Origin: Hyphomonas sp.
GTDB taxonomy: Bacteria > Pseudomonadota > Alphaproteobacteria > Caulobacterales > Hyphomonadaceae
NCBI RefSeq assembly: GCF_016125515.1
Contig: NZ_WGLO01000019.1
Span: forward strand, 1-64,000
DNA length: 64,000 bases
Direction: 5' to 3'
Shown here piece by piece: positions 31,338 through 36,112 of the stretch; positions within the stretch are counted from its first letter, which is position 1; every line of letters starts with the position of its first letter. A program made the translations under genes and the position numbers. The notes below the pieces were generated by a model. It had not been told where the DNA came from and did no database searches. It saw only the letters and a program-made list of their open reading frames with translations.

Positions 31338-32387
31338 TCAGGCGCGGTGGGCCCTGGCCTCCATGCCGGTTTTCCATAGCGAGAACAGGATGGCGCCGCC
31401 CAGCAGCGACACGGTCGCGATCAGTGACCATTGCGGCTCCAGATACGGCACCAGCTTCATCTCCTTGTAGAGCAGGAAGTTCCAGAAGATCTTCAGGCCG
31501 ATCAGGACCAGCACCAGCGACAAGCCATACTTCAGGTACTTGAACCGTTCCACCGCCGCCGAGAGCATGAAATACATCGAGCGCAGGCCGAGGATGGCGA
31601 AGATGTTCGAGGTGTAGACGATGAACGGGTCGCGCGTGACCGCAAAGATGGCGGGCACCGAGTCGACCGCGAAGATGATGTCCACCGCTTCGACCATCAG
31701 CAGGCAGAGCAGCAGCGGCGTCGCCCAGAGTACGGCCTTGCCGGTGACGGGGTGGGGCCGGCGCACGACGAAATTGTGGTTGTCGATGGTGTCGGTCACC
31801 CGCATCCGTTTGCGCAGGAATTTCAGGACAGGGTTCTGGTTGAGGTCCATCTCGTCATCGTCGCCAGCGCCCGACAGCAGCATCTTGCCGCCGGTGAAAA
31901 GCAGGAAAGCGGCAAAGATGTAGAGCACCCAGGTGAACTCGTTGACTACCGCAGCGCCGAGCGAGATGAAGATACCGCGGAACACGATGGCGCCGAGGAT
32001 GCCCCAGAACAGGACCCGGTGCTGGTATTCCCGCGGGACCGCGAAGAAGGTGAAGACGAGGCCGATGACGAAGATGTTGTCGAAGGCGAGGGCGGTTTCC
32101 AGCAGGTAACCGGTCGCGAACTGCATCGTGGCCTGAACGTTCAGGTTCTCGGGCTCGTTGTAGAAGGCCGGATCGGGCTCGTAGAAGAAATAGATGTAGG
32201 CGCCGAAGGCCACTGCCAGCGAGGCGAAGCAGGCCCACATGACGGCGCTCTTGGCCGGCGAGACGACGGCGTCCTTGCGGTTCAGGAGGCCGAGATCAAC
32301 CCAGAGAAGGCCGATGATGAGACCGAGGAAGGCAAGCCAAAGCCACAGGGGCTGGCCTGCGTAGGCGACAGTCACGATTTCAGGCAT
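31338..32387 (-). CDS. TerC/Alx-family integral membrane protein
   Basis: A 349-residue polytopic membrane protein with about nine helices. The family's paired acidic motifs are LLETALAFDNIFVIGLVF and LMVEAVDIIFAVDSVPAIFA, which probably bind a metal ion. TerC/Alx proteins are linked to tellurite resistance and manganese export. The ATG at 32387 starts the conserved MPEIVTVAYAGQPLWLWLAF; a longer frame runs back through the his leader. A stem GCATTTGC-GGCG-GCAAATGC (32451-32470) lies in its upstream region. Confidence 0.93.
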   Translation of the reverse strand: MPEIVTVAYAGQPLWLWLAFLGLIIGLLWVDLGLLNRKDAVVSPAKSAVMWACFASLAVAFGAYIYFFYEPDPAFYNEPENLNVQATMQFATGYLLETALAFDNIFVIGLVFTFFAVPREYQHRVLFWGILGAIVFRGIFISLGAAVVNEFTWVLYIFAAFLLFTGGKMLLSGAGDDDEMDLNQNPVLKFLRKRMRVTDTIDNHNFVVRRPHPVTGKAVLWATPLLLCLLMVEAVDIIFAVDSVPAIFAVTRDPFIVYTSNIFAILGLRSMYFMLSAAVERFKYLKYGLSLVLVLIGLKIFWNFLLYKEMKLVPYLEPQWSLIATVSLLGGAILFSLWKTGMEARAHRA

Positions 32388-32450
32388 GGGTGTCCAGAGG
32401 TCCGGAGAAGCGCGCCGCGTCAGCGCAAGTTCCGTGAGGGATCCGACATC

Positions 32451-32470
32451 GCATTTGCCGCCGCAAATGC
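32451..32470 (-). promoter_or_regulatory. Stem-loop in the terC upstream region
   Basis: Eight-base arms GCATTTGC and GCAAATGC around a four-base loop, 64 bases before the terC start. It would fold in the terC leader RNA. I do not see the conserved GGGGAGTAGC of the manganese-sensing yybP-ykoY riboswitch, so its role is open. Confidence 0.4.
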
Positions 32471-32562
32471 CAGAGGGGCCCGGCTCCAATTCCGTGGCAG
32501 AACGTAGTACGTCCCCGCGCCGGGTCAAGCGGCGGCGCTCAGGCCGGCGGGGCCGGGAGCGG

Positions 32563-32591
32563 TTGACTCCGGCCCGGCACGCCAGTATCCG
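32563..32591 (+). promoter_or_regulatory. Promoter of the his leader and hisS-hisZ-hisG
   Basis: TTGACT (32563-32568) and TATCCG (32586-32591) are spaced by 17 bases. Transcription would start at about 32598-32600, which coincides with the ATG of the leader peptide. Confidence 0.6.
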
Positions 32592-32599
32592 CCAGCGCC

Positions 32600-32635
32600 A
32601 TGAACGCCCATCTGTACCACCACCATTACGCATGA
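32600..32635 (+). CDS. hisL: Histidine leader peptide (candidate attenuation peptide)
   Basis: An 11-codon frame encodes MNAHLYHHHYA followed by TGA, with four histidine codons of which three are consecutive. It sits 173 bases before hisS, HisZ and HisG, the genes expected to respond to charged tRNA-His. There is no ribosome-binding site, but the promoter at 32563-32591 places the transcript start at or within two bases of this ATG, so translation would be leaderless. Leaderless leader peptides are known in alphaproteobacteria, for instance the trp leader of Sinorhizobium. Not experimentally shown here. Confidence 0.7.
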   Translation: MNAHLYHHHYA

Positions 32636-32808
32636 CGCGCCGGCGAGGCGCGAACCGGTCCGGCTGCGCCTCTGATAGTGTTCACTCCCCAGAACCGAAG
32701 CAGATGAGGCAGGCCAGGGCCGGGGCCCGCGCCCGTTCGACGTGCCGCCTTCCCATTCCGGCCCGCGACGTTTAAGCGGGCCCAGCCCGATACAGGACCC
32801 GACTGACT
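32636..32808 (+). promoter_or_regulatory. Candidate his attenuator region
   Basis: Directly after the leader stop codon, CGCGCC (32636-32641) can pair with GGCGCG (32647-32652). The overlapping GAGGCGC (32645-32651) can instead pair with GCGCCTC (32666-32672). The two stems exclude each other, as in attenuators. Closer to hisS, GGCCCGC and GCGGGCC can form a stem around GACGTTTAA. No stem is followed by a clear T-run, so termination may be Rho-dependent or control may be translational. Confidence 0.5.
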
Positions 32809-34290
32809 ATGAGCGACAAGGCCTCCCCGCCCGCCACCGGCAAGGATCTCGCCCGCAAGCCGCGCGGCTTTCCCGACAAGCGGGAAGGCCTGATCCATGC
32901 GCAGGCCCGGCTGGTGGAGACGGTCACCGGCGTTTACCGCCAGTGGGGTTTCGAGGCGCTCGATACCGGCGCGTTCGAATATGCCGACGCGCTCGGCAAG
33001 TTCCTGCCCGATGACGACCGGCCGAATGCCGGCGTGTTCGCCATCCAGGACGATGACGAACAATGGATGTCGCTGCGCTATGACCTGACCGCGCCGCTCG
33101 CCCGGTTCGTGGCGGAGCAGGGCCAGGGACTGGGCCGTCCGTTCCGGCGCTATGCGGCGGGCCCGGTCTGGCGCAACGAGAAGCCCGGCCCCGGCCGGTT
33201 CCGCGAATTCTGGCAGTGCGATGCCGATACGGTGGGCGCGTCCGGCTTCCATGCCGATGCCGAGATGATCGCGATGGGCGCCGAGGCCCTGCGTGCCATC
33301 GGCATGCGGGACGGCGAATTTGTCGTGCGCGTGAACACACGGCGGCTGCTGAACGGCGTGCTCGACTCTGTCGGCGCCGAGAAGGCCGAAACGCGCCTTG
33401 CGATCCTGCGCGCGCTCGACAAGCTGGACCGGCTGGGCGCTTCGGGCGTTGCCGACCTGCTCGGCGCGGGCCGCAAGGATGACAGCGGCGACTTTACCAA
33501 GGGCGCCGGGCTCGGCGCGGACGAGGTGAAGCGCGTGCTGGCCTTTGCCGAAGCGGGCGCTGCCACGCGGGCGGTGACGCTGGCCAACCTCGCCAAGGCG
33601 GCAGGATTTACCGACGAAGGCAAGGCGGGCCTTGCCGAACTCGAAGCCATCGCGCTGGCACTGGAAGCGCTTGGCGCGCCCGAGGACGATGTGAAGATCG
33701 ATCCGTCCGTGGTTAGAGGACTTGAATATTATACCGGCCCGGTCTTCGAGGCCGAGCTGCTGCGCGAGGTCACCGGCGAGGACGGCAAGACCTATCGGAT
33801 CGGTTCGATCGGCGGCGGCGGACGCTACGACGACCTCGTCGCGCGCTTCACGGGTGAGACGGTTCCAGCGACGGGGTTCTCCATCGGTATCTCGCGCCTC
33901 GCTGCGGCGCTGGCGATCCTGGGCGAGGGCGCAAAGCTCGACGGGCCGGTGGTCGTGCTCAATCTGGACAAGGACAATCCGGCGCTTGCGCTCGGCCTGG
34001 CGACAGAGCTGCGCCGAGCCGGCCTGCGCGCCGAGGCCTATATGGGCGCGTCGTCCATGAAGGCGCAGATGAAGTATGCCGACCGCCGCGCCTCGCCGGC
34101 CGTTGTCATCGTTGGCGGCGATGAGGTGGCGAAGGGCACAGTGACCATCAAGGATCTCGAGATGGGCGCGATGAAGGCCAAGGCCATCTCGTCGAATGAG
34201 GAATACCGCGACGCGCGGCCGGGCCAGATCGAGGTGCCGCGGGCCGAGATGGTTTCAGCCGTGCGCGCAATTGTCGAGGCGCAGCGATGA
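32809..34290 (+). CDS. hisS: Histidine-tRNA ligase
   Basis: A 493-residue class II aminoacyl-tRNA synthetase that charges tRNA-His. Motif 2 is VWRNEKPGPGRFREFWQCDAD (about 124-144), preceded by SLRYDLTAPLARFVA. The histidine-specific motif GLEYYTGPVFEA (about 304-315) and motif 3 in GSIGGGGRYDDLVARF are present. The anticodon-binding domain follows from PVVVLNLDKDN. It is the first gene of hisS-hisZ-hisG, with hisZ overlapping its stop. AGGA lies about ten bases before the ATG. Confidence 0.96.
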   Translation: MSDKASPPATGKDLARKPRGFPDKREGLIHAQARLVETVTGVYRQWGFEALDTGAFEYADALGKFLPDDDRPNAGVFAIQDDDEQWMSLRYDLTAPLARFVAEQGQGLGRPFRRYAAGPVWRNEKPGPGRFREFWQCDADTVGASGFHADAEMIAMGAEALRAIGMRDGEFVVRVNTRRLLNGVLDSVGAEKAETRLAILRALDKLDRLGASGVADLLGAGRKDDSGDFTKGAGLGADEVKRVLAFAEAGAATRAVTLANLAKAAGFTDEGKAGLAELEAIALALEALGAPEDDVKIDPSVVRGLEYYTGPVFEAELLREVTGEDGKTYRIGSIGGGGRYDDLVARFTGETVPATGFSIGISRLAAALAILGEGAKLDGPVVVLNLDKDNPALALGLATELRRAGLRAEAYMGASSMKAQMKYADRRASPAVVIVGGDEVAKGTVTIKDLEMGAMKAKAISSNEEYRDARPGQIEVPRAEMVSAVRAIVEAQR

Positions 34291-35408
34291 ACCACGACGC
34301 TCTTGTCGCTGTGGCGCGCGCGGTGTTCGAAGCCGCTGGCGGCACGCCGATCGATCCCGACTATGTTCTGCCAGCGGACATTCCGCTGGAGCTGTCCGGC
34401 GAAGCCGTCCGCGCACGCCTGTGCGTGTTCACGGACAATCGCGGCGCCGAGATGGTGATGCGGCCGGACCTGACGTTGCCGGTGGCCCAGCGCGAAGTGG
34501 CGCGGCTCGCAGAGGCGGGCGCCTCGGCCAAGACCTACACCTATGCCGCGCGGGCGTTCCGCCTGCCGGCGGCAGCGGATGATCCGTTCGAGTTCACGCA
34601 AGTCGGCGTCGAGCGTTTCGGACATGACGCCGGCCCAGCCGCTGATGCCGAACTGTTCGCGCTGGTCCACCGCGCGGTGGAAGCCTGCGGTGTGCAGCCG
34701 GTCGCAGTGGTCACGGGCGATCTCGGCATTTTTCCGGCCTTCATCGATGCGCTCGGGCTCCCCACTGTCTCGACCGATCTTCTGAAGCGGGCCTTTCGCC
34801 AGGAAGGCGGCGTGCGCGCCGTGCTCGACGCGGGTGCGCGCGAACTCGATGCCGACGTGCTGGCGGCGCTGGACGCGGACGGTGCCGAAGCGGCGCTCGG
34901 CGCGGTGCTGGCGGCGCGGGCCATTCCGCTCGCCGGTGCGCGCAGTCTCGCCGAAATCGTGGACGGCCTGCGGGCGCGGCGCGCCGCGATTGCGGCGGGC
35001 GGCCTGCCGGAGACAGCGCGCGCGGCGCTGCTGGCGCTGCGCGATGTTGATTGTCCGCTTACGGAGGCACCCGGCCGGCTGAGCGATCTGGCACGCACGT
35101 ATGGCCTTGCCGGCGCGGACGCGGCGCTCGCGGCATTCGCGGCGCGGGTCGAGAAGATCATGGCGCTGGTGCCGGCGGCCCGCCGCACGGCGGCTTTCCG
35201 CGCAGGCTTTGGCCGCCGCTTCACCTATTATGACGGCTTCGTGTTCGAAGTGCTCGCAGATGGTCTGTCGGCCAGCCAGCCGGTGGCGGCGGGCGGCCGG
35301 TATGACGGCCTGATCGCGGGTCTGTCTTCGGGGCGTGTCTCGGCGACCGGCATCGGCGGCATCGTGCGGCCTGACCGTATGGTGCGTGTACGGAGGGCGG
35401 GCGCATGA
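34287..35408 (+). CDS. hisZ: ATP phosphoribosyltransferase regulatory subunit
   Basis: A 373-residue HisS paralogue without tRNA-charging activity that forms the complex with short-form HisG and makes it active and histidine-sensitive. It keeps the class II fold, with MRPDLTLPVAQREVA, RAFRLPAAADDPFEFTQVGVERFG and the C-terminal AGGRYDGLIAGLSSGRVSATGIGG, but lacks the anticodon-binding domain. It overlaps hisS by four bases (ATGA) and hisG by four bases, so the three are translationally coupled. Confidence 0.93.
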   Translation: MNHDALVAVARAVFEAAGGTPIDPDYVLPADIPLELSGEAVRARLCVFTDNRGAEMVMRPDLTLPVAQREVARLAEAGASAKTYTYAARAFRLPAAADDPFEFTQVGVERFGHDAGPAADAELFALVHRAVEACGVQPVAVVTGDLGIFPAFIDALGLPTVSTDLLKRAFRQEGGVRAVLDAGARELDADVLAALDADGAEAALGAVLAARAIPLAGARSLAEIVDGLRARRAAIAAGGLPETARAALLALRDVDCPLTEAPGRLSDLARTYGLAGADAALAAFAARVEKIMALVPAARRTAAFRAGFGRRFTYYDGFVFEVLADGLSASQPVAAGGRYDGLIAGLSSGRVSATGIGGIVRPDRMVRVRRAGA

Positions 35409-36112
35409 GCCGGCTGACGATTGCAATCCCGTCCAAGGGGCGGCTGAAGGAACAGACCGAGGCCTGGCTCGCCGGCATCGGTCACCCGCTTCGTCAGATC
35501 GGCGGGGAGCGGGGTTATACCGCAGAGCTCGAAGGGCTGGACGCCGAAGTGCGCCTCCTCTCGGCGCGCGAGATCGCGCAGGGCCTGATCGAGGGCAGCC
35601 TACATTTCGGGGTGACGGGCGAAGACCTGCTGCACGATCTTGCCCCGGACGGGCCGGCGGAGTTCCGTGTGCTGAAGCGGCTCGGCTTCGGCGGGGCCGA
35701 TGTGGTGGTGGCGGTGCCACAGGCCTGGTTCGACGTTGATTCGATGGCGGATCTAGAGGCGGCCGGCGCCGCTTTCCGCAAAGCCCACGGCCGGCGCCTG
35801 CGCGTGGCGACGAAATACATGCGCATCACGCGCCGTTTCTTTGCCCAGAAATCCGTCGGTGAATACCGTCTGGTTGAAAGCGCGGGGGCGACCGAGGCGG
35901 CGCCGTCAACGGGGACCGCTGACGTCATCGTGGACATCACGACAACTGGCGCCACGCTGAAGGCCAACGGACTCAAGATCCTTGGAGACGGCGTGATCCT
36001 GAAGAGCGAAGCGGCGTTCACGCAATCTGTGCGCGCAGACTTCGGCGGCGGGGCCGGGCAGGCCGCAGAACAACTGATGGGCGCCTTGTCGCAGGCGGAT
36101 CACATTTCCTGA
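35405..36112 (+). CDS. hisG: ATP phosphoribosyltransferase, catalytic short form
   Basis: A 235-residue enzyme for the first step of histidine synthesis, joining ATP and PRPP. LTIAIPSKGRLKEQT opens the protein, and the PRPP-binding segment is DVIVDITTTGATLKANGLKIL (about 172-192). It lacks the C-terminal regulatory domain of long HisG, in line with the HisZ partner encoded upstream. It is the last gene of the operon; a terminator-like hairpin lies at 36201-36241. Confidence 0.95.
   Translation: MSRLTIAIPSKGRLKEQTEAWLAGIGHPLRQIGGERGYTAELEGLDAEVRLLSAREIAQGLIEGSLHFGVTGEDLLHDLAPDGPAEFRVLKRLGFGGADVVVAVPQAWFDVDSMADLEAAGAAFRKAHGRRLRVATKYMRITRRFFAQKSVGEYRLVESAGATEAAPSTGTADVIVDITTTGATLKANGLKILGDGVILKSEAAFTQSVRADFGGGAGQAAEQLMGALSQADHIS

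What the first reader, a model, noticed from the sequence alone, without database searches (positions are those of the whole stretch)
32600..32672. Leaderless histidine leader peptide upstream of hisS-hisZ-hisG
The frame MNAHLYHHHYA has four His codons among 11 and lies exactly where the promoter TTGACT-17-TATCCG would start transcription. Directly after its stop codon two stems exclude each other: CGCGCC/GGCGCG and GAGGCGC/GCGCCTC. This is the classic geometry of amino-acid attenuation, here controlling tRNA-His charging together with the HisZ-HisG enzyme. Histidine attenuation is well known in enterics, but a leaderless version heading a hisS-hisZ-hisG operon is, to my knowledge, not described. 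A canonical T-run is missing, so the output step may be unusual.
Basis: partly seen in the sequence, partly recalled or inferred. Interest (0 to 1): 0.75.

Follow-up and report, generated by a model that had tools for sequence, protein, structure and literature searches.

The report
Leaderless histidine-sensing leader before hisS-hisZ-hisG
Just upstream of a bacterium's histidine-handling genes lies a tiny conserved gene that is little more than a run of histidine codons, followed by RNA that can fold in two mutually exclusive ways, very probably a switch that turns the genes up when histidine runs short, although how it finally acts is still open.

Summary
The 11-codon frame MNAHLYHHHYA (32600-32635) is the window's only 5-15-codon ATG frame with at least 4 His codons and sits at its only TTGAC-17-TA-(6-10)-ATG site. 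The element recurs before hisS in 35 of 42 genus genomes and in two sister genera. In 64 of 64 aligned copies the promoter spacer is 17, the ATG follows the -10 by 6-10 nt, and no SD-like motif precedes it. Two exclusive stems, B:C and C:D, are kept in 99.7% and 97.9% of cells, though covariation is thin. Best reading: a ribosome-stalling His attenuator on a leaderless transcript. The output step is unsettled: no U-run in the window, though 11 of 29 sister copies have one; SD masking by the C:D loop was tested and rejected; a possible second hisS promoter lies downstream. Leaderless trpL attenuators and Bacillus hisS/hisZ His leaders are on record, so this is a new variant of a known kind.

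The parts
32563..32591 (+). P1 promoter: TTGACT (32563-32568), 17-nt spacer, TATCCG (32586-32591)
   Evidence: TTGACN-17-TA.... in 64 of 64 aligned copies
32600..32635 (+). leader ORF MNAHLYHHHYA + stop, inferred leaderless (ATG 8 nt after the -10)
   Evidence: leader in 34 of 34 genus relatives that bear the element and in 29 of 29 copies of two sister genera
32600..32607 (+). segment a (start codon region, AUGAACGC); 32601-32607 pairs with segment e
   Evidence: own pairing better than swapped partners, 0 of 5000; sister copies ATGAACAC:GTGTTCAT and ATGAAAAC:GTTTTCAT
32636..32641 (+). segment B, CGCGCC, directly after the stop codon; pairs with 32647-32652
   Evidence: 99.7% of cells paired, one two-sided change (GC to AU)
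32645..32652 (+). segment C, GAGGCGCG; pairs either with B or with D
32665..32672 (+). segment D, TGCGCCTC; C:D hairpin (attenuator-like)
   Evidence: 97.9% of cells paired; outer pair GC 46, GU 7, AU 2, CG 1, other 3 among 59 distinct rows
32678..32684 (+). segment e, GTGTTCA, complement of segment a
   Evidence: GTGTTC identical in 35 of 35 genus copies
32750..32777 (+). candidate second promoter P2 for hisS: TTCCCA-16-TTAAGC; overlaps hairpin H (32760-32766 with 32776-32782)
   Evidence: 46 of 64 copies fit a relaxed pattern with spacing 16, 18 do not; hairpin pair 181:195 UG 12, AU 10, UA 6, other 6. Promoter versus hairpin not decided
32809..34290 (+). hisS, histidine--tRNA ligase
   Evidence: TIGR00442 and PF13393 over cut-off
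34287..35408 (+). hisZ, ATP phosphoribosyltransferase regulatory subunit (overlaps hisS by 4 nt)
   Evidence: best NCBIfam hits are HisZ models, below their cut-offs; PF13393 over cut-off
35405..36112 (+). hisG, ATP phosphoribosyltransferase (overlaps hisZ by 4 nt)
   Evidence: TIGR00070 and PF01634 over cut-off

Best explanation
It is a histidine-responsive, ribosome-mediated attenuator on a leaderless transcript. P1 transcription starts at or within about 3 nt of the ATG at 32600 (inferred). A ribosome begins on the 5'-terminal AUG and reads a frame dominated by His codons (frame and conservation shown; translation inferred). If His-tRNA is scarce the ribosome stalls at the His codons: segment B is then still free and pairs with C, so the C:D hairpin cannot form and transcription goes on into hisS-hisZ-hisG. 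If His-tRNA is plentiful the ribosome reaches the stop codon and covers B, so C pairs with D and the transcript is attenuated (the exclusive helices are shown by conservation, with thin covariation; the logic is inferred). The start-codon segment a also pairs with e just 3' of C:D (shown by changes in step between sister copies). A ribosome stalled on the first His codons would cover a, so stalling would disturb both helices of the OFF form; when the leader is not being translated a:e would shut the AUG (inferred). Attenuation most likely acts on transcription: the C:D tail is U-rich in 11 of 29 sister copies, and in 7 sister loci a tRNA-Gln gene, which must be cut out of any transcript that runs through it, lies between leader and hisS. 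In Hyphomonas, where there is no U-run in 34 of 35 copies, the last step may need Rho or pausing (inferred).
For: Leader, promoter and stems recur: 35 of 42 genus genomes, 27 of 27 genomes (at least 90% complete) of sister genus g3 and 2 of 2 of g8; 64 of 64 copies have TTGAC-17-TA, the ATG 6-10 nt on and no SD-like motif. His codons mix CAC (181) and CAT (163) while the residue is kept. B:C and C:D; energies of the two forms close (window -24.9 with B:C, -27.1 with C:D). a:e. Runs of 4-5 T after C:D in 11 of 29 sister copies, including 9 of 9 whose leader begins MKT. tRNA-Gln(TTG) between leader and hisS in 7 of 63 relatives scanned. hisG follows in 13 of 14 leader-bearing Hyphomonas loci (the 14th, L018, is cut by its contig end). 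One match in the window's own genome.
Against: No transcript, translation or histidine-response data. No U-run in the window; only 1 of 35 genus copies has 4 T in a row. Covariation of B:C and C:D is thin: within the genus they hardly vary; on 59 distinct rows two-sided changes are 3 cells in C:D and 1 in B:C; the number of C:D pairs with two-sided change is reached by 250 of 500 shuffles, and sliding C:D by +2 or +3 columns gives a higher covariation score (0.106, 0.084) than the true register (0.078), although far fewer cells pair (76.0%, 45.4% against 97.9%). a:e is weak in 6 of 64 copies (L087, L145-L148, L224). Single-sequence folding is not better than shuffles. The possible P2 would let hisS be made without the leader. 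Five genus genomes keep hisS without it, among them the highest-scoring HisS relative (G023, 94% identical).
Confidence: 0.7

Rival explanations
1. Same leader and sensing, but the output is translational: the alternative structures mask or expose the hisS ribosome-binding site about 120 nt downstream.
For: No U-run in the window; RNAalifold on 35 genus copies pairs the C:D loop GGUCC with the hisS SD GGACC, 97.6% of cells. RBS-sequestering attenuators are mentioned in PMC9413887 (passage).
Against: Own loop:SD pairing is no better than swapped partners over 60 loci (481 of 2000 permutations reach it), so conservation alone explains the apparent pairing. In 7 sister loci a tRNA gene separates leader and hisS.
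Confidence: 0.15
2. The P1 transcript is mainly a small regulatory RNA or small mRNA acting in trans (as rnTrpL/peTrpL do in S. meliloti), while hisS is driven by its own promoter P2.
For: P2-like block just before hisS, spacing 16 in 46 of 64 copies and also in the g6 relative without a leader (L124); the genus relatives without the leader have TTGCC-16-CTAG in that place (9 of 9 loci, which stand for 5 genomes, four of them seen twice); a:e would close the start codon of a released RNA; precedent in PMC7298713 (passages).
Against: The peptide is a run of His with little else kept; the 62 strong hits in 398 order genomes lie upstream of hisS, one per genome (with places); 11 of 29 sister copies look like a cis terminator.
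Confidence: 0.12
3. The His-rich frame and stems are conserved by descent only, e.g. as promoter or terminator DNA for the divergent terC unit, with no histidine sensing.
For: Strong sequence identity within the genus; the divergent terC RNA motif lies nearby.
Against: Synonymous CAC/CAT switching with the residue kept; a:e changes in step between sister copies; by eye the sequence before the element in several relatives resembles the end of a thioesterase frame and not terC, yet the element stays with hisS; Caulobacter/Phenylobacterium have an unrelated His leader at the same place.
Confidence: 0.03

Closest known systems
Enteric his operon attenuator (hisL; Rfam His_leader, name recalled)
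   Same: Leader peptide with consecutive His codons, exclusive hairpins, his-related target genes (general description in passages of PMC9413887).
   Different: Heads hisS-hisZ-hisG; inferred leaderless; no U-run in the window; extra start-codon pairing; no His leader match in Rfam even at E 5.
Sinorhizobium meliloti trpL attenuator (rnTrpL/peTrpL)
   Same: Alphaproteobacterial leader-peptide attenuator whose RNA starts with the ATG of the leader ORF (passages of PMC7298713).
   Different: Trp instead of His; different genes; I did not look for a start-codon:tail pairing there.
Bacillus hisS*/hisZ histidine leader peptides
   Same: His leader peptides predicted upstream of hisS and hisZ paralogues (passages of PMC2965389).
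   Different: Firmicutes, found by their premature terminators; that paper reports no similarity to proteobacterial leaders.
Caulobacter/Phenylobacterium hisS leader (seen here)
   Same: His-rich leader frame (e.g. MTRFAHHHGHHHPT..., about 25 codons) upstream of hisS, by eye a -10-like CTA/TATA just before the start, and hairpins in which 4 of 14 predicted pairs have two-sided changes.
   Different: No evident similarity of peptide or RNA; longer frame; in 19 of the 62 loci L020-L081.

Membership tests
Ribosome-mediated amino acid attenuator | Short leader ORF rich in codons for the amino acid handled by the downstream genes | tested here: met
   target genes
Ribosome-mediated amino acid attenuator | Two mutually exclusive helices placed so that ribosome position decides between them | tested here: met
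   geometry and conservation: (covariation thin); ribosome cover of about 12 nt downstream as stated in PMC4833913 (Background section read)
Ribosome-mediated amino acid attenuator | Intrinsic terminator (hairpin plus U-run) | tested here: not met
   window: longest T run 2 after C:D, none on the + strand by the terminator scan; 11 of 29 sister copies have runs of 4-5 T
Ribosome-mediated amino acid attenuator | Expression rises when the amino acid is scarce | not testable with these tools
   needs reporter or RNA-seq
Enteric His_leader RNA family | Match to a curated covariance model | tested here: not met
   Searches (gathering; E up to 5): no His leader match
Leaderless mRNA | Transcript begins at the start codon | tested here: inconclusive
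   promoter geometry and no SD-like motif in 64 of 64 copies; 5' end not mapped
T-box riboswitch | T-box covariance model match upstream of an aaRS gene | tested here: not met
   no T-box match

The most novel reading that the evidence does not exclude
A three-helix attenuator in which the 5'-terminal start codon is one strand of the OFF structure: the AUG segment pairs with the tail of the attenuator hairpin, so that a single stalled ribosome on a leaderless mRNA blocks both OFF helices at once; and in sister genera the same device has been widened to carry a tRNA-Gln gene and Gln codons, i.e. an attenuator that reads codons served by the tRNA it transcribes. Support for the second half: of 29 sister copies all 7 with a tRNA-Gln between leader and hisS have Gln codons in the leader, against 1 (L144) of 22 without it (Fisher p 5e-6, not corrected for descent); among 34 genus relatives, none with the tRNA, one leader (L094) has a Gln codon. 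At least one tRNA-bearing genome also has an ordinary tRNA-Gln(TTG) gene.
Probability: 0.25. Interest if true: 0.75.

Novelty: new variant of a known kind. Interest (0 to 1): 0.52.

Why it matters
It gives a compact, testable attenuator for leaderless translation initiation in Alphaproteobacteria, couples tRNA-His charging with the first enzyme of histidine synthesis, and may use a start codon as a structural strand. Because forms with and without a U-run, and forms that carry a tRNA gene, exist side by side in sister genera, it also offers a natural series for asking how an attenuator works without a canonical terminator.

Tried and rejected
Loop:SD pairing (GGUCC:GGACC), suggested by RNAalifold: swap test not significant, rejected. 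F:G pairing further downstream (GAGGCA with TGCCTT): 86.3% of cells paired, with many mismatches at one pair, not pursued; a D:F pairing was thought of but not counted. e:f hairpin GUUC:GAAC: invariant in the genus, by eye not kept in the MKT-type sister copies; left open. Intrinsic terminator in the window: none. Rfam: only tRNA and terC over threshold; other low hits were far below their cut-offs. Further copies: the order-wide covariance search (398 genomes drawn from a larger group, stricter filters) gave 64 genomes at E <= 0.001, of which g1 33, g3 27, g8 2; the other two (G225, G241) and weak second hits in G005 and G039 were read and lack the leader architecture; in three of these four the match looks like a His-rich protein tail.

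Rows dropped and limits: L145 (hisS start not found) left out of the loop:SD test (60 of 61); L032 (similar to L028) left out of A4, and L029 also out of A6 (17 of 19 Caulobacteraceae-type leaders); G042 (g2) upstream region not fetched, so 52 of 53 other family genomes were looked at; for g4-g7 and 3 of 12 g9 genomes the first scan asked for a run of 3 His codons, for the other 9 g9 genomes for an ATG frame with 2 His codons; none of these genera is among the genomes with a match in the covariance search. MAFFT misplaced segment e in several sister copies, so a:e was tested by best complementarity against swapped partners and not by columns.

Prior art: Vitreschak 2004 is not held and Lopatovskaya 2010 was seen only as a citation, so an earlier prediction of this element cannot be excluded; paper searches on this question were (one search was on terC RNA).

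Full report
What is there. The window is G000:C12:1-64000 of a 3.2-Mb genome; its nearest hisS relatives are largely labelled Hyphomonas or Hyphomonadaceae. Three overlapping genes, hisS (32809-34290), hisZ (34287-35408) and hisG (35405-36112), were identified with NCBIfam and Pfam models (the HisZ models hit below their own cut-offs). Upstream, and divergent from terC with its terC RNA motif on the minus strand (32434-32491), lies the reported element: TTGACT-17-TATCCG, ATG at 32600, MNAHLYHHHYA, stop, then B (CGCGCC), C (GAGGCGCG) and D (TGCGCCTC).

Is it more than chance? It is the only ATG frame of 5-15 codons with >=4 His codons on either strand of the 64 kb (of 301 short frames), and the only TTGAC-17-TA-(6-10)-ATG site, and both are the same ATG. 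Folding the one sequence shows nothing unusual, so the case rests on comparison.

Conservation. A BLAST search of 42 whole genus genomes found the element in 35, the window's own included; 40 of 42 gave a hisS match. All 34 relatives encode 11-12 codons with 4-7 His codons next to a TTGACT-17-TAT[CT][CG]G promoter. At family level I looked at the hisS upstream regions of 52 of 53 other genomes: 27 of 27 in g3 and 2 of 2 in g8 have a leader (10-12 codons, 2-6 His; the poorest is MSYGPHPHCA), while none was found in g4, g5, g6, g7 and g9 (3, 1, 1, 6 and 12 genomes). A covariance model searched in 398 order genomes gave strong hits only in these three genera, one per genome; four weak hits elsewhere lack the architecture. 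In all 64 aligned copies the promoter spacer is 17, the ATG follows the -10 by 6-10 nt, and there is no AGGA/GGAG/GAGG in the 14 nt examined before it. That is what a leaderless transcript would look like; 375 leaderless mRNAs are reported for Caulobacter (passages of PMC4117421).

Helices. On 61 copies (59 distinct) B:C is paired in 99.7% of cells and C:D in 97.9%. Two-sided changes are few: one cell in B:C (GC to AU) and three in C:D, all at the outer pair (GC 46, GU 7, AU 2, CG 1, other 3). For C:D 0 of 500 shuffles reach the share of paired cells and 11 of 500 the covariation score, but 250 of 500 reach the number of pairs with two-sided change, and the versions slid by +2 and +3 score higher on covariation while pairing far fewer cells; for B:C 21 of 500 shuffles reach each measure. 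In the genus alone these helices barely vary. With either helix enforced the energies lie within 5 kcal/mol of each other in 8 of 9 copies tested, L146 being the exception.

A third helix. The first 8 nt of the leader are complementary to a segment just 3' of C:D. Sister copies show ATGAACAC with GTGTTCAT or ATGAAAAC with GTTTTCAT. Best complementarity of own partners averaged 16.86 against 14.8 (sd 0.28) for swapped partners, 0 of 5000 as high, over 64 copies; in 25 de-duplicated sister copies 17.08 against 13.55, 0 of 5000; shuffled tails give 8.8. These permutations do not correct for descent. ATGAAAAC scores 18.1 with tails of its own type and 9.9 with ATGAACAC tails. Exceptions: L087, L145, L146, L147, L148 and L224 score 13 or less. 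For the window alone 28 of 2000 shuffles reach its score.

Output. The window has no U-run after C:D (longest 2); 1 of 35 genus copies (L099) and 11 of 29 sister copies, among them 9 of 9 MKT-type ones, have 4-5 T. ARAGORN finds a tRNA-Gln(TTG) between leader and hisS in 7 of 63 relatives, all sister copies; as a tRNA must be excised, control there is more simply placed at transcription, unless the tRNA has a promoter of its own. The alternative, SD masking by the loop, failed its swap test. A block TTCCCA-16-TTAAGC (TTCACA-16-CTAAGC in many sisters, and TTCACA-16-CTAACG in the g6 relative L124 without a leader) just before hisS may be a second promoter: 46 of 64 copies fit a relaxed pattern, 18 do not. 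It overlaps a hairpin with covarying pairs, and I cannot decide between the two.

Mechanism. Taking about 12 nt as the ribosome's cover downstream of the codon read (PMC4833913, Background section read), a ribosome at the first His codons of the run leaves B free, whereas one at the stop codon covers B and the first bases of C. That is the classical logic with B:C as the ON form and C:D as the OFF form. The cover upstream (about 15 nt, recalled) would put segment a under a ribosome stalled at the first His codons, so a:e and C:D would both be favoured only when the ribosome has moved on or is absent. All of this is inference from anatomy.

Side finding. The 7 loci with tRNA-Gln all have Gln codons in the leader; of the 22 other sister copies one (L144) does. 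One complete genome of this kind also has an ordinary tRNA-Gln(TTG), so the leader copy is an extra there. Whether Gln is sensed is open: CAY to CAR needs one base change and the loci represent few lineages.

Known and new. A leaderless leader-peptide attenuator is known for trp (PMC7298713, passages), and His leaders before hisS/hisZ paralogues in Bacillus (PMC2965389, passages). I saw no paper on a His leader before hisS in Hyphomonadaceae or Caulobacteraceae in the listings of searches, but two key comparative papers were not available.

Noticed in passing
L123, L125, L126, L129, L131, L147, L148 (sister genera g3 and g8): A tRNA-Gln(TTG) gene lies between the His leader RNA and hisS, and these leaders carry Gln codons (e.g. 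MKTRLHHHHQQT); by eye L134, L135 and L144 seem to hold decayed remnants.
   Followed up: partly
19 of the 62 loci L020-L081 (e.g. L024, L025, L031, L040, L056): Caulobacter and Phenylobacterium loci have an unrelated, longer His leader (MTRFAHHHGHHHPT...) upstream of hisS, followed by a hairpin with compensatory pairs and, by eye, a segment complementary to the hisS start region.
   Followed up: partly
window 32434-32491, minus strand: terC RNA motif (RF03067, 60.7 bits) upstream of a divergent TerC/Alx-family gene (31338-32387).
   Followed up: no
L003, L005, L006, L015; L116-L120 (genomes G023, G030, G033, G034, G036): Close relatives (HisS 87-94% identical) without the element: their hisS has TTGCC-16-CTAG 37-38 nt before an ATG, as if the leader had been lost or replaced as a block.
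   Followed up: partly
L002, L004, L006: Records titled Candidatus Sulfopaludibacter or Acidobacteria carry Hyphomonas-like hisS (92-93% identical): probably mislabelled assemblies.
   Followed up: no
window 32750-32782: Promoter-like block that is also a covarying hairpin directly before hisS.
   Followed up: partly
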